DNA from: a virus
IMG/VR virus record: IMGVR_UViG_3300033993_001516
Coordinates: 1 to 39,284 of that record
Length of the DNA stretch: 39,284 nucleotides
Reading direction: 5' to 3' (one strand)
Numbering within the stretch: the first letter of the stretch is position 1; each line of letters begins with the position of its first letter. Positions 2,866-12,009 of this stretch are shown here, one piece after another. The position numbers and the translations under genes are program-made. A model generated the notes under the pieces. That model saw only the letters and a list, made by a program, of their open reading frames with translations. It did not search any database and was not told the origin of the DNA.

Positions 2866-3707
2866 TAGAGCGAGAGAATGGTTTTAAATTTGTGGACGAG
2901 TTCCTTGTTTGTCGAAAGCAGCCATTGGTAAGCCTGCTCTGAGGAATACAACTTAATGCGCGTTTGGCCCTCGACGTGGGCCTTGAGGGCAGAAGCGGTT
3001 GTCTTGAAGTGGGCAATGGCATTGGCCCCGCCCATCATCGGATGTCGTTTAATCCACCCAATTAGTGCCCGGCTTGGAGCGTTTTCGGGGCCGGTAATAC
3101 TAACCAACTCCGCCATAAACTCCTCGGCATCCATCGGGGCCGTAGTGTGGAGCAATACTGTGGCGGCAATGGCCGACGCGGGAGGCCGGAACATCTGCCG
3201 CTTGCTTTCCGCTATGGCCGCACAGGTTTCGACGTGCCCGCCAACAACCTCCAAAACCAACTGAATTTGTGGCAAGGATACGGCTCCCACCTTTGGGTTT
3301 CCGCACGCTATAAGCAGACAGCGCGCCACAGCGGCAATCCTTCTGCCGTTGCTAACGCCCTCCATGCCCAACACGTCGCCAGCCTTGCGGATTCGGCCTT
3401 GGTCAATCGTGTTCCACGTTTTCATTTGGCCCCCATTGGCCTTCTGAGAAACGGCAATTCCCGTGCTTACCAACATCTGCACGGGCTTGTTTGCCATAAC
3501 CACCGCCGCCAATCGGTGCTGTCCATCCAATAGGATTCCGTCTTCGTCGAAGGCAATGCCCTGGTGTGTTAATAGGAATGTGCCAGCCTTAATGTCTCTG
3601 GCCAATTTTTCCGCCCACGTCTTCTGAAAGCGGATATTCCGTGTATTTCGCTTCTCCAAAACCTCCGAGGCCCAGCTCGGAGTGATTGTTTCGACTTTGA
3701 TGTTCAT
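2865..3707 (-). CDS. ParB/Srx-fold protein with DGQHR motif
   Basis: A 280-residue protein starting at the ATG at 3707, overlapping the Mom-like stop as ATGA. Residues 25-75 contain the family signature: FQKTWAEKLARDIKAGTFLLTHQGIAF, then ILLDGQHRLAAVV. The DGQHR box marks ParB/sulfiredoxin-fold proteins found in many phages, in DndB of the phosphorothioate system and in other DNA-modification islands. The later two-thirds is helical and not recognised. Tight coupling to the Mom-like gene suggests a joint role in DNA modification or its control. A segregation role is unlikely because no ParA is present. Confidence 0.75.
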   Translation of the reverse strand: MNIKVETITPSWASEVLEKRNTRNIRFQKTWAEKLARDIKAGTFLLTHQGIAFDEDGILLDGQHRLAAVVMANKPVQMLVSTGIAVSQKANGGQMKTWNTIDQGRIRKAGDVLGMEGVSNGRRIAAVARCLLIACGNPKVGAVSLPQIQLVLEVVGGHVETCAAIAESKRQMFRPPASAIAATVLLHTTAPMDAEEFMAELVSITGPENAPSRALIGWIKRHPMMGGANAIAHFKTTASALKAHVEGQTRIKLYSSEQAYQWLLSTNKELVHKFKTILSL

Positions 3708-4357
3708 GTGTGTGTGTTCTCTTTTTGGTTTTTGGCCCCCGTGGGCGAAATTGTGCGGCCCGAATCAAACCGCTTAACGAAAAGCCACTTCCTAGATCTC
3801 GGCTTCCATTCTCCATCCAAGCCGCTGACCTTACCGCGCTGCTTGATTTTGCCGTCTATGTAGAAATCGGTCTTTTGGGCGGTAAGTCCCAAGGCGGTAA
3901 ATCCCGACGCTCGGTAGATCGTCCCAACGTGGCCTTGGCCGTCATCGGCGTAGGTAATGACGCCGCGCACAAGCTGAGTTCGCTTGATTAGACGAAGTGT
4001 TACGCCGATGAAGCGGCTCTCGCTGTTTCGCGGACAAGCCTCGCTCATTGCCAGGCGCTTTATCTCCCACCAATCGTTTTGCGTTTCGGGCGTCCAATAG
4101 CCTTTCAGGTATTTGGCGTTGGGCGGGCCGTAGCTAATTGAGCCTTGAAGCTCGCCCTCAAAATACGCCCCGAAGTTGATCTGCGACAAAAACGGAGTAT
4201 CGCCCAAGTAGTGCCACCGACGATACGCGCCGGCCGCAGTTACCGCGTTGATCTCGCGGAAATAAAGTTGGAGCGGCGAGGTCGGAATTGCACCGCCATC
4301 TTCCCCTTGGAATAGGGGCAGTTCTGCTGTTGAACTATCGCCGCAAAAAGTTGTCAC
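3704..4357 (-). CDS. Mom-like (GNAT-fold) DNA modification protein
   Basis: I place the start at GTG 4357 because GGGAGG lies 5 nt upstream; the longer reading would begin at a TTG. The 217-residue product has the Mom-family pattern: an R-WHYLGDTPF segment, FGAYFEGELQGSISYG, EIKRLAMSEACPRNSESRFIG with ITYADDGQGHVGTIYRASGF, and a final KIKQRGKVSG. In phage Mu, Mom converts adenines to a carbamoylmethyl form, which blocks host restriction. Members of this family are GNAT-fold. The gene opens the second half of the early operon, just after the inserted plus-strand cassette, and is coupled to the ParB-like gene. Substrate and modification are inferred. Confidence 0.7.
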   Translation of the reverse strand: MTTFCGDSSTAELPLFQGEDGGAIPTSPLQLYFREINAVTAAGAYRRWHYLGDTPFLSQINFGAYFEGELQGSISYGPPNAKYLKGYWTPETQNDWWEIKRLAMSEACPRNSESRFIGVTLRLIKRTQLVRGVITYADDGQGHVGTIYRASGFTALGLTAQKTDFYIDGKIKQRGKVSGLDGEWKPRSRKWLFVKRFDSGRTISPTGAKNQKENTHT

Positions 4358-4427
4358 GCCGCCCTCCCGTCTCTGTAAACATCCGTGTAAGTGCCTGATT
4401 CCCAACGGCCAAAAAAATCGCTCTTTT

Positions 4428-4470
4428 TCTTGAAATACCTGTTGACAGATTCAAGATCGCATGAGATATT
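4428..4470 (+). promoter_or_regulatory. Sigma70-type promoter with overlapping operator
   Basis: A consensus -35 box TTGACA (4442-4447) is followed after 17 bp by GATATT (4465-4470). A perfect inverted repeat TCTTGAA (4428-4434) / TTCAAGA (4450-4456) flanks the -35 box with centres about two helical turns apart, a typical repressor site. The expected start of transcription, near 4477, is only a few bases before the ATG at 4480. Confidence 0.65.
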
Positions 4471-4479
4471 GTCTGCGTT

Positions 4480-4671
4480 ATGAGAACACACAGCACCAAA
4501 GCCAAAGCCATCCGCAGTCAGATGGCGGTCTTCAACTACGACGGCACCCATTGGGTTGTCGTGCGTGGATTCAAGGGCACCGAAGTCCTCGGTCGCTTCA
4601 CCAACCAACGCGATGCTCAAGCCTTGTGCGAACAGCACAACGTGGCGCTCGCCAAAACCATCAACGGCTAA
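4480..4671 (+). CDS. Small protein, probably translated from leaderless mRNA
   Basis: A 63-residue protein, MRTHSTKAKAIRSQM..., the first gene of a three-gene plus-strand cassette embedded in the minus-strand early operon. The promoter -10 box ends at 4470, leaving almost no leader, so translation may begin leaderless as for lambda cI from PRM. The N-terminus is basic. The rest (HWVVVRGFKGTEVLGRF) looks like a small beta-sheet fold followed by a helix. Small proteins in self-regulated phage cassettes are often anti-defence factors. That is inference, and the family is unknown. Confidence 0.65.
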   Translation: MRTHSTKAKAIRSQMAVFNYDGTHWVVVRGFKGTEVLGRFTNQRDAQALCEQHNVALAKTING

Positions 4672-4680
4672 CCGAACTCC

Positions 4681-4932
4681 ATGACCACGCTTATCGACAA
4701 ATTGATTTCGCAACTGCCGCCCACCGCGACCGTTGCCGAGACACACCCCCTGACCCAAGACGCCGACGCCGAGATTGTTTTGGGCGGCGCATACGATGGC
4801 TGCCGAATCCAAGTCGGTAGAAACTACTACGTTGTCGCGGCTGAAGACGGCAACGACGGCATTGTTCAAATCGACGGCAAGGGCGATTTGTGCTCGGAAC
4901 TCAATGCGGTGATTGCCGCTCAGTGCTTGTGA
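4681..4932 (+). CDS. Small acidic hypothetical protein
   Basis: An 83-residue acidic protein in the middle of the plus-strand cassette. It has a short N-terminal helix (LIDKLISQL), then alternating beta-like segments rich in Asp and Glu (TQDADAEIVLGGAYDG, VVAAEDGNDGIVQIDGKGD) and a C-terminal helix. Excess acidic residues recall DNA-mimic inhibitors, but no family is recognised. Its stop overlaps the next start as GTGA. No strong Shine-Dalgarno site is seen, and the gap to the previous stop is 9 nt. Confidence 0.65.
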   Translation: MTTLIDKLISQLPPTATVAETHPLTQDADAEIVLGGAYDGCRIQVGRNYYVVAAEDGNDGIVQIDGKGDLCSELNAVIAAQCL

Positions 4933-5096
4933 AAACCCACGGGGGCAAACGCAATGGCGCGGGGCGCAAGCCCCGCCCCGATGCCGTGGTGACGGCATCC
5001 ATTTCCCTGCGCCCGCAGGATTGGCAGAGGCTTGACCAACTGCGCGGCGACGAGTCGCGCAGCGCGTGGGTGCGGAAGAAGGTGCGCGAGTCATAG
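4929..5096 (+). CDS. Ribbon-helix-helix-like regulator of the plus-strand cassette
   Basis: A 55-residue protein starting at GTG 4929, which overlaps the upstream TGA. The N-terminus carries GKRNGAGRKPRPDAVV, a basic arm common in small phage regulators. ASISLRPQDWQRLDQL and SAWVRKKV then match a beta strand plus two helices of the MetJ/Arc type. As the last gene of an operon whose promoter carries an inverted repeat, it probably represses its own cassette, like the Aca partner of anti-CRISPR genes. The stop codon lies directly beside the stop of the convergent gene at 5091. Confidence 0.6.
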   Translation: MKTHGGKRNGAGRKPRPDAVVTASISLRPQDWQRLDQLRGDESRSAWVRKKVRES

Positions 5097-5363
5097 CGAA
5101 TACTCCGCAACACGTTTGCCCGTCGCCGTCTCGACGATCTCGCGCTTGATCGCCCACCCTTCGCGCTTTAGCTCCGCAATCCGCGCCGCCAACCGATTGC
5201 AGCCCCACAGTTGCAGAGCGAGCATCGGCGTGACGCGCTTTCCGAGTTGCAGCCAGCCCAAGATGAACGCAGCCTGCGTCGGCTTCTGATTGCGCTCCTC
5301 GGCCTCGTCGGCCTCAACTATGTTGGTTCCGTGGTCGGCCCACAGTTCGGGTTGCCAGGTCAT
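5091..5363 (-). CDS. Helix-turn-helix protein of the phage recombination operon
   Basis: A 90-residue protein starting at the ATG at 5363, overlapping the exonuclease stop as ATGA. The core AAFILGWLQLGKRVTPMLAL and LWGCNRLAARIAELKREGW fits a winged-helix fold widely found in small phage proteins: a helix, a RVTPM turn, then a recognition helix with R-AARI-EL, followed by an IKREIVETATGKRVAEY beta wing. It probably binds DNA or serves as an accessory to recombination or replication. It is the last gene of the upstream early block before the convergent plus-strand cassette. Confidence 0.7.
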   Translation of the reverse strand: MTWQPELWADHGTNIVEADEAEERNQKPTQAAFILGWLQLGKRVTPMLALQLWGCNRLAARIAELKREGWAIKREIVETATGKRVAEYSL

Positions 5364-6202
5364 GCCGCCCCCTTCCCATAAACCCACGAAGGAAGGTTCA
5401 AGCACTGCACCTCTGGCGCATACCCCGGCCACACTCCCGCATCCTCGCACCGAGCGATAAGTTCCAGCGCGTCATTCATCATGCCCACACCCAGATCGAG
5501 CGCGTCGGGATGTATCTCGTAGACCGCCACCGCAAAAGGCGGGGCCACTTCCACCGCGATCCAGTAGAAGCGGCACGGCGGCAGGCCGTTTAGCCCTGCC
5601 AGATGGCAATACCAAGCCGCCGAAACGTGGTAGTTAAGCGATGCCGCTTGCCGCGAGAACGTGTTGTAGTCCGCGCCCGCGCTCGTGGTTTTTACGTCCA
5701 CGATCACGCTGTTCATGTCGCTCTCGACTTTGAGCGCATCCACGCGGCCCTTGATCCACAAGCACGTCCTATGCTCGGCAAACATCGCCACCTCGCTGTC
5801 GCAGCCGGCCAGCAAAGCCTTCGCCGCATCGTGCGCGGCGATTGAGTCGCGGATTCCCCTGACTGCTCTCGCCTCGTCGGCGTCGAGGATCGGCGTGGTG
5901 CCCATCTTGGCTTTCCACTCCTTGCCTTCTTTGGTGCGGAAGTCGCCCTCCTTGCCTTCGGGTTTCTCAACGAAGGCTGTGTCCAGCTTGTTAGGCTCGA
6001 GGACGGCAACGTGTGCCATCGTTCCAAGGAGCATGGCCTTGCTCGGCTCGCGCTTCAGTTCCCCCGCCATGTGGGCCGCGTAGTGTGCTGGCGTGAGCGG
6101 CGGCAGGATCTTCTTGGCGTCACTGCCCGCGATGGCCGGGGCCATGCGGTATTCTGCTTCGGGCATCTGGTAGTGGATGCCTGTGAGGTTTTGGGCGCTC
6201 AT
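5360..6202 (-). CDS. RecE-type PD-(D/E)XK exonuclease
   Basis: A 280-residue protein. The catalytic part at about residues 150-200 has WIKGRVDALK, IVDVKTTSAGAD and then FSRQAASLNYHVSAAWY. The Asp of GRVD, the Asp-x-Lys of VDVKTT and the following QAA...Y...A helix are the signature of RecE/exonuclease VIII C-domains. Upstream GTMAHVAVLEP gives the conserved histidine region. The enzyme would resect one strand of double-stranded DNA ends and hand it to an annealing protein. It lies 2 nt after the stop of the 306-residue recombination protein, so the two form a Red/RecET-like pair. Confidence 0.85.
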   Translation of the reverse strand: MSAQNLTGIHYQMPEAEYRMAPAIAGSDAKKILPPLTPAHYAAHMAGELKREPSKAMLLGTMAHVAVLEPNKLDTAFVEKPEGKEGDFRTKEGKEWKAKMGTTPILDADEARAVRGIRDSIAAHDAAKALLAGCDSEVAMFAEHRTCLWIKGRVDALKVESDMNSVIVDVKTTSAGADYNTFSRQAASLNYHVSAAWYCHLAGLNGLPPCRFYWIAVEVAPPFAVAVYEIHPDALDLGVGMMNDALELIARCEDAGVWPGYAPEVQCLNLPSWVYGKGAA

Positions 6203-11356: not shown

Positions 11357-11520
11357 GTGTGTGTTTCCTTTCTGCTCTCGATGAGCTTGGCGATGTCGGC
11401 CAAGTCGTATCGGGTGCCGTGCGCCGAGAGCCGGACGCGCGGCAAAAGTTTCGCAACCTTGTTGCGGGAGATCCGCAGCAGCGTGGCGGCTTCCTTGGTC
11501 GTGACGAGTTGCGGGGTCAT
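11347..11520 (-). CDS. Excisionase-like / MerR-type HTH protein
   Basis: A 57-residue protein starting at the ATG at 11520, overlapping the RHH stop as ATGA. LVTTKEAATLLRISRNKVAKLLPRV, then TRYDLADIAKLIESR, is the classic small winged helix of excisionases and helix_17-type HTH proteins (T-KEAA-LL-IS, then RY...DI). It probably binds attP DNA to favour excision, or acts as an early activator. It is the second gene of the leftward early operon, close to the integrase on the opposite strand. Confidence 0.75.
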   Translation of the reverse strand: MTPQLVTTKEAATLLRISRNKVAKLLPRVRLSAHGTRYDLADIAKLIESRKETHTWT

Positions 11521-11693
11521 TTGGAGCGTGTTCGCTTGTGGCCGTGTTGGGACACATTGTTCGCCAAAAAAAGACGCAGCGCCGTGCGAACCAAGTGCGA
11601 GACAGGAACGCAATCGCGTCCCGAAATTTTCATCAGCGCATCGAACATCGACGAGGAGATGCGCGCTTTGATCGAAGTCGTAAGCTCGTTCAT
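11517..11693 (-). CDS. Ribbon-helix-helix regulator (leftward)
   Basis: A 58-residue protein starting at the ATG at 11693. TTSIKARISSSMFDALMKIS gives the beta strand and first helix, then VPVSHLVRTALRLFL the second helix, as in Arc/MetJ-type repressors. The longer reading from 11714 starts with TTG inside the operator and is rejected. It lies head-to-head with another RHH gene, with operator-like repeats between. The pair probably forms the lysis-lysogeny switch in place of CI/Cro. Confidence 0.7.
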   Translation of the reverse strand: MNELTTSIKARISSSMFDALMKISGRDCVPVSHLVRTALRLFLANNVSQHGHKRTRSK

Positions 11694-11699
11694 GTGGGG

Positions 11700-11742
11700 C
11701 ACAATGGGACACAATGGGGTATGGGGTCAAGTCCCTATTGTG
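11700..11742. promoter_or_regulatory. Divergent operator region of the genetic switch
   Basis: CACAATGGG occurs at 11700-11708 and 11710-11718 as direct repeats 10 bp apart. An inverted copy, CCCTATTGTG, lies at 11733-11742. Runs of eight T follow on each side of GAC (about 11743-11762), likely bent DNA. These sites lie between the two divergent RHH genes and are the obvious binding sites for one or both. Confidence 0.6.
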
Positions 11743-11793
11743 ATTTTTTTTGACTTTTTTTTAGGGCGGCTGGAACGTGGGACAAAGGAACAC

Positions 11794-12009
11794 ATGAGTA
11801 GCAATCTGGACATTGAGCTAAAAGTAAGGATCAGCGAGGCCATGAGTCGGCAAATCGACACAGTGGTAGCGTCCCGCCCGGAGGGGGTAAACCGAAGCGA
11901 TATTGTCCGCGAAGCAATTGCAGGATTGCTAACAAACCAGCTTCACGAGTCGGGCAAGGATGATCTTCGCAAGGCCGCGAGTCGCATAAAACGCAGCCTC
12001 GGAAAGTAG
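11794..12009 (+). CDS. Ribbon-helix-helix regulator (rightward)
   Basis: A 71-residue protein. I start at the ATG at 11794 because AAAGGA lies 4 nt upstream; the open frame reaches back to 11359 but only shadows the leftward genes. DIELKVRISEAMSRQIDTVV is the strand and helix A, and GVNRSDIVREAIAGLLTNQL helix B. The basic tail is AASRIKRSLGK. It faces the leftward RHH gene across the operator and is transcribed toward the integrase, so it is the better candidate for the prophage repressor. Confidence 0.75.
   Translation: MSSNLDIELKVRISEAMSRQIDTVVASRPEGVNRSDIVREAIAGLLTNQLHESGKDDLRKAASRIKRSLGK

What the first reader, a model, noticed from the sequence alone, without database searches (positions are those of the whole stretch)
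4428..5096. Self-regulated three-gene cassette resembling an anti-defence (acr-aca) locus
Three small plus-strand genes interrupt a minus-strand operon. They have a consensus -35, an operator palindrome over it, two small unknown proteins (one acidic) and a last gene of ribbon-helix-helix type. Anti-CRISPR loci have this layout. The cassette ends with its stop directly beside the convergent gene's stop, as in a compact insertion.
Basis: inference. Interest (0 to 1): 0.65.

Follow-up and report, generated by a model that had tools for sequence, protein, structure and literature searches.

The report
Swappable self-regulated phage gene cassette
A temperate phage carries three tiny genes inserted exactly between two genes of its early operon, next to a gene that chemically disguises its DNA from restriction enzymes; a near relative has a different middle gene there, as expected of an exchangeable accessory cassette, but an anti-CRISPR role is only a guess.

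Summary
Three plus-strand genes (p63, p83, p55) with one near-consensus promoter sit inside a minus-strand early operon. Codon statistics favour the plus strand over the open antisense frame. In 25 of 27 relatives the flanking genes, HTH_39 and a Mom DNA-modification gene, are joined by a 4-base stop/start overlap; the cassette was inserted exactly there. One relative (L010) has a DNA methyltransferase at the same junction. The near-identical phage L002 keeps promoter, p63-like gene and p55 but has an unrelated 111-residue middle gene: a swapped-effector pattern.

The acr-aca reading is only partly supported. It fits layout, promoter, gene swap and antirestriction neighbours. But p55 matches no ribbon-helix-helix or HTH model, the 7+15+7 palindrome arises in about 8% of shuffles, and no protein has a characterised relative. 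I call it an accessory (moron-like) cassette with a probable autorepressor; counter-defence is the single likeliest function (about 35-40%).

More surprising is the neighbour. The first 25 codons of this mom gene and of 50 uncultured relatives fold as a conserved tRNA-Gly-like cloverleaf (Rfam tRNA hits, compensatory changes, 4-fold sites 90% identical against 32% downstream). It is absent from nine named-phage mom genes examined.

The parts
4428..4456 (.). Inverted repeat TCTTGAA-N15-TTCAAGA around the -35 hexamer; putative operator
   Evidence: exact, unique in window; 167/2000 shuffles of the intergenic region have one as good
4442..4470 (+). Sigma-70-like promoter TTGACA-17-GATATT with TG before the -10; predicted start only a few bases before the p63 ATG (near-leaderless)
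   Evidence: same sequence in L002
4480..4671 (+). p63: small basic protein, helix + three-stranded sheet + helix predicted; no known family
   Evidence: 58% identical L002 homologue at the same place
4681..4932 (+). p83: acidic orphan; variable middle gene (replaced by an unrelated 111-aa gene in L002)
4929..5096 (+). p55: GAGRK-type small basic protein with a possible strand-helix-helix (RHH-like) core; candidate autorepressor
3704..4357 (-). mom: Mom-family DNA modification (antirestriction) protein, GTG start at 4357
   Evidence: PF25680 E 2.3e-31; phrog_1384 E 9e-34
4269..4344 (-). tRNA-Gly(UCC)-like cloverleaf with discriminator and CCA inside the first codons of mom
   Evidence: absent in nine named-phage mom loci
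5091..5363 (-). HTH_39 winged-helix gene; its stop codon is the insertion point of the cassette
   Evidence: PF14090 E 3e-12; junctions
4354..5094 (-). Open antisense shadow frame from the HTH_39 stop/start overlap to the mom start; not under coding constraint, possible translational bridge

Best explanation
An accessory, independently transcribed (moron-like) cassette of a temperate phage, probably of a Verrucomicrobiota host, inserted exactly at the HTH_39-stop/mom-start overlap of the early operon. A strong promoter makes a three-gene mRNA at the start of infection or in the lysogen (inferred). The last gene, p55, most likely binds the operator over the -35 and shuts the cassette off (inferred). 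The middle gene is the exchangeable effector (swap shown, function inferred); p63 is its partner or a second effector. Counter-defence is the single likeliest function, because the junction also receives a DNA methyltransferase and sits next to mom.
For: Insertion point shown to the base: HTH_39 and mom share ATGA/GTGA in 25 of 27 relatives, and L010 has an N6_N4 methyltransferase there. Middle gene swapped between conserved p63-like and p55 genes in L002. Plus-strand coding. Promoter and palindrome. Mom neighbour. p55 under purifying selection and basic, with an RHH-register profile match. Integrase and excisionase-like genes make the phage temperate. Nearest terminase from an Akkermansia phage.
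Against: Palindrome only modestly better than chance. No RHH or HTH family match for p55 and a poor structural model. No terminator after p55, unlike classic morons. Only two examples of the cassette are known, and nothing ties it to a particular defence system.
Confidence: 0.6

Rival explanations
1. A true acr-aca locus: p63 and/or p83 inhibit a CRISPR-Cas system and p55 is a new type of Aca repressor.
For: Operon layout, strong promoter with an inverted repeat inside it, small orphans, swapped middle gene. The known Aca operons have the same promoter anatomy (PMC9410906). RHH proteins have been seen among early anti-defence genes of archaeal viruses (PMC11065993).
Against: All ten Aca families described in that paper are HTH proteins; p55 matches none of the family libraries searched. 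No match to any defence-related model. The same anatomy is shared by many other phage accessory genes.
Confidence: 0.15
2. A prophage-expressed moron acting on the host or on rival phages (superinfection exclusion or defence), silenced when the opposing early operon fires.
For: Own promoter on the strand opposite to the early operon, inserted between operon genes, exchangeable content, temperate phage.
Against: No membrane or toxin signature found; no terminator; no relatives with known function.
Confidence: 0.25
3. A toxin-antitoxin pair (p83 or p63 with p55 as DNA-binding antitoxin).
For: Small overlapping genes, autoregulation geometry, possible RHH regulator.
Against: Regulator is last and only 55 aa, without a toxin-binding tail; no toxin family match; an unrelated partner in L002 with a p55 that is 93% identical argues against a co-evolved pair.
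Confidence: 0.08
4. A mom-control module: p55 binds the shared 122-bp intergenic region and regulates the divergent mom gene as well as itself.
For: The operator lies between the cassette and mom; the insertion removes mom from its ancestral stop/start coupling.
Against: No promoter-like site for mom on the minus strand was found; 25 relatives control mom without such a cassette.
Confidence: 0.12
5. The plus-strand genes are artefacts of a single minus-strand gene (246 codons, 4354-5094) filling the operon.
For: The frame is open in both phages and joins both neighbours with 4-base overlaps; it stays open in only 5% and 2% of synonymous resamplings.
Against: Codon log-odds favour the plus strand for all three genes in both phages; 7 of 10 substitutions in p55 are at plus-strand third positions, which are second positions of the minus frame.
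Confidence: 0.05

Closest known systems
acr-aca operons (Aca1-10 regulated; PMC9410906)
   Same: small orphan genes followed by a small regulator gene, strong sigma-70 promoter with an inverted repeat in the core promoter, exchangeable upstream gene
   Different: p55 is not detectably HTH, the regulator family is unknown, no inhibition shown, inverted repeat not statistically compelling
Phage morons (own-promoter accessory genes inserted between phage genes)
   Same: independent promoter, opposite strand, precise insertion, variable content
   Different: no terminator detected; function unknown
Phage Mu com-mom operon
   Same: the neighbouring gene is a Mom-family antirestriction modifier; in Mu, mom translation is gated by RNA structure (PMC6483171)
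   Different: no Com homologue was identified; here the structure is a tRNA-like cloverleaf inside the coding sequence, and a three-gene cassette lies upstream on the other strand

Membership tests
acr-aca operon | small acr-type gene(s) and a regulator gene co-transcribed from one promoter | tested here: met
   contiguous plus-strand genes, gap of 9 nt then 4-nt overlap, one promoter-like site; co-transcription itself is inferred
acr-aca operon | regulator is a helix-turn-helix Aca | tested here: not met
   no HTH match for p55 in Pfam, PHROGs, NCBIfam; Aca1-10 models themselves were not available
acr-aca operon | inverted repeat within the core promoter | tested here: inconclusive
   present at 4428-4456 but 8% of shuffles do as well
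acr-aca operon | protein inhibits CRISPR-Cas | not testable with these tools
   needs plaque or plasmid interference assays
Ribbon-helix-helix regulators (PF01402/PF12651) | profile match or RHH fold | tested here: inconclusive
   no HMM match even in a search of the 39-kb record, where two other proteins do match; profile-profile alignment in the right register, P 0.0018 but probability 15%; low-confidence monomer model without the strand
Phage moron | own promoter, inserted between genes contiguous in relatives | tested here: met
   promoter is a sequence prediction
Phage moron | own terminator | tested here: not met
   no terminator-like site after 5096 before 5671
Mom family (neighbour) | Mom profile | tested here: met
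   PF25680 109.5 bits, cutoff 27.1
tRNA (element in mom) | cloverleaf scored by the Rfam tRNA model | tested here: inconclusive
   window 26.2 bits, below the gathering score of 29; 7 of 10 relatives above it; anticodon loop of 6 nt is irregular

The most novel reading that the evidence does not exclude
Mom production in this group of phages is gated by a tRNA-Gly-like cloverleaf embedded in the first codons of mom and opened by ribosomes arriving from the upstream gene through the stop/start overlap. The inserted cassette keeps that coupling alive by carrying an open antisense frame that bridges the upstream stop to the mom start while its sense strand encodes three accessory genes. The existence of the cloverleaf is well supported; the gating and the bridge are inference.
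Probability: 0.2. Interest if true: 0.75.

Novelty: new member of a known kind. Interest (0 to 1): 0.45.

Why it matters
Autoregulated, exchangeable cassettes beside antirestriction genes are a productive place to find new counter-defence proteins, and here the conserved flanks (HTH_39 and mom) give a base-precise bait for finding more inserts at the same junction. Independently, a tRNA-like structure inside the start of mom genes would give a directly testable new mode of control for one of the oldest known and still puzzling phage antirestriction genes.

Tried and rejected
Relatives of p63, p83 and P0006 were sought in IMG/VR and phage records, of p55 in IMG/VR, phage and plasmid records, and of p63 in 84,980 genomes: only L002 was found. 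A search of IMG/VR for the operator pattern found only L002. PADLOC, NCBIfam, Pfam and (for p63, p83) PHROGs gave nothing for p63, p83 and P0006. A home-made RHH profile scored p55 no better than shuffles and was abandoned as uninformative. Fold searches with the p63 model gave no significant match; the best viral matches are unnamed small proteins, with DUF2188 and SPOR-type entries among the weak ones. The single minus-strand gene reading was considered and rejected. An attachment-site origin of the tRNA-like element was rejected: it is full length, lies about 8 kb from the integrase and also occurs in phages without these neighbours. A first comparison of the element with the downstream Mom domain used a wrong frame and was redone.

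Full report
WHAT IS THERE. The window is an IMG/VR virus record. It is a temperate tailed phage with integrase, excisionase-like HTH_17 protein and terminase. Its closest named large terminase, at 30% identity, is from an Akkermansia phage, so a Verrucomicrobiota host is likely. The early genes run on the minus strand: recE-like exonuclease (5360-6202), HTH_39 winged-helix gene (5091-5363), mom (3704-4357), a ParB-like phrog_5931 gene and a replication initiator. Three plus-strand genes lie between HTH_39 and mom.

IS IT REAL. Yes. With a codon table trained on 8063 codons of the phage's confident genes, p63, p83 and p55 score +24.8, +31.8 and +13.6 bits in the annotated frames. The best antisense frames score 11.5, 12.0 and -1.6, and 116 of 121 control windows pick the true frame. 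Against L002, p55 has dN 0.03 and dS 0.16, and p63 dN 0.27 and dS 0.51. The promoter TTGACA-17-GATATT with extended -10 is the only such site in 3 kb (0.8 expected), and it puts the transcript start close to the p63 start codon. The palindrome TCTTGAA-N15-TTCAAGA is exact and unique, but one as good appears in 167 of 2000 shuffles of the intergenic region.

INSERTION SITE. Of 51 Mom loci fetched from IMG/VR, 27 also have the HTH_39 gene. In 25 of these its stop overlaps the mom start as ATGA or GTGA. L010 has an N6_N4 DNA methyltransferase (PF01555, E 2e-48) starting at exactly that overlap. The window and L002 have the cassette there. The HTH_39 gene keeps the ATGA and mom keeps GTGA or ATGA, so the insertion point is defined to the base. 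This junction therefore takes up accessory genes, one of them a modification enzyme.

GENE SWAP. L002 (7.5 kb; mom differs at 9 of 654 positions) has the same promoter region, a p63 homologue (58% identity), p55 (93% identity), and between them a 111-residue protein unrelated to p83. The break from about 1.5% divergence to dS 0.5 falls between the palindrome and the p63 start, so identity of the palindrome in L002 is not independent evidence of an operator. The pattern, conserved ends and exchanged middle, is what a cassette with a common regulator and exchangeable effector would show; only two examples exist.

WHAT THE PROTEINS ARE. No family match for p63, p83 or the 111-aa protein in the libraries searched. 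p63 folds with moderate confidence (pLDDT 79) as helix, three strands, helix, with no significant structural neighbour. p55 has the GGxRxGAGRKP start seen in other small phage and plasmid proteins, for example a 37%-identical Brevibacillus plasmid protein. Its C-terminal half aligns in the strand-helix-helix register with known RHH repressors (hhalign P 0.0018, probability 15%), but Pfam RHH models miss it even where they find two other RHH-like proteins of this phage at 11.5-11.9 kb, and the monomer model is poor. RHH is plausible, not shown.

MECHANISM. Shown: insertion site, coding strand, gene swap, selection on p55, Mom neighbour. Inferred: p55 represses the cassette through the palindrome; the middle gene is an effector; the function is counter-defence (about 35-40%, of which anti-CRISPR about 15%), otherwise a prophage-expressed moron, a mom-control module or a toxin-antitoxin pair. 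Layout and promoter agree with Aca-regulated operons, but an HTH Aca was looked for and not found, so I do not file it as acr-aca.

ANTISENSE FRAME. A 246-codon minus-strand frame runs from the HTH_39 stop/start overlap to the mom start. The equivalent frame is open in L002 although the middle gene there is unrelated. Resampling synonymous codons leaves it open in 258 of 5000 (window) and 110 of 5000 (L002) trials. It is not a gene: p55 substitutions fall mainly at plus-strand third positions, which are its second positions. It could let ribosomes travel from HTH_39 to mom and so keep the ancestral coupling; this is a post-hoc observation and unproven.

THE tRNA-LIKE ELEMENT IN MOM. The first codons of mom (minus strand 4344-4269) read as a tRNA-Gly(UCC)-like sequence ending in the discriminator and CCA. 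Rfam tRNA scores 26.2 bits in the window (gathering 29) and above gathering in 7 of 10 relatives; ARAGORN calls it in 5 relatives. In 19 distinct sequences 99.7% of pair cells are standard, with compensatory changes in two acceptor pairs and one D-stem pair; sliding the partners drops this to 40-54%. RNAalifold and single-sequence folding of two relatives return the cloverleaf, although in the window itself the minimum-energy fold of a longer stretch pairs the acceptor strands differently. Among representative pairs whose Mom domains are under 50% identical, 4-fold sites within the element are 90% identical against 32% downstream, so the RNA or DNA sequence is constrained, or the element has spread as a unit. 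A scan for the core DNA motif found essentially the same contigs, all with Mom. Nine mom loci from named phages show no such element. The relatives were partly found through this conserved peptide, so 'all relatives have it' is biased; the link of the motif with Mom is not. A likely role is control of mom expression, as RNA structure does in phage Mu, or RNase P processing. I found no paper describing it in the open-access library, which is not proof of novelty.

VERDICT. Interest is moderate for the cassette and higher for the mom element beside it.

Noticed in passing
window 4269-4344, minus strand; also L002-L051: The first codons of mom form a conserved tRNA-Gly-like cloverleaf with compensatory changes and near-invariant synonymous sites, while the downstream Mom domain diverges to about 25% identity; not seen in nine named-phage mom loci.
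   Followed up: yes
window 4354-5094, minus strand; L002 1715-2566, plus strand: An antisense frame through the whole cassette is open in both phages and joins HTH_39 to mom with 4-base overlaps at both ends; chance 5% and 2% by synonymous resampling.
   Followed up: partly
L010 1063-2052: A DNA N6/N4 methyltransferase gene occupies the same HTH_39-mom junction where the window has the cassette.
   Followed up: partly
window 11517-12009: Two divergent RHH-type small proteins (weak RHH_1/RHH_3 matches) next to an excisionase-like HTH_17 gene and the integrase; probably the lysogeny switch.
   Followed up: no
L037 6014-6085 and L038 1223-1294: In these two the tRNA-like element has the canonical G18 and T55 positions, whereas all others have A18 with G55: a possible tertiary covariation.
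   Followed up: partly
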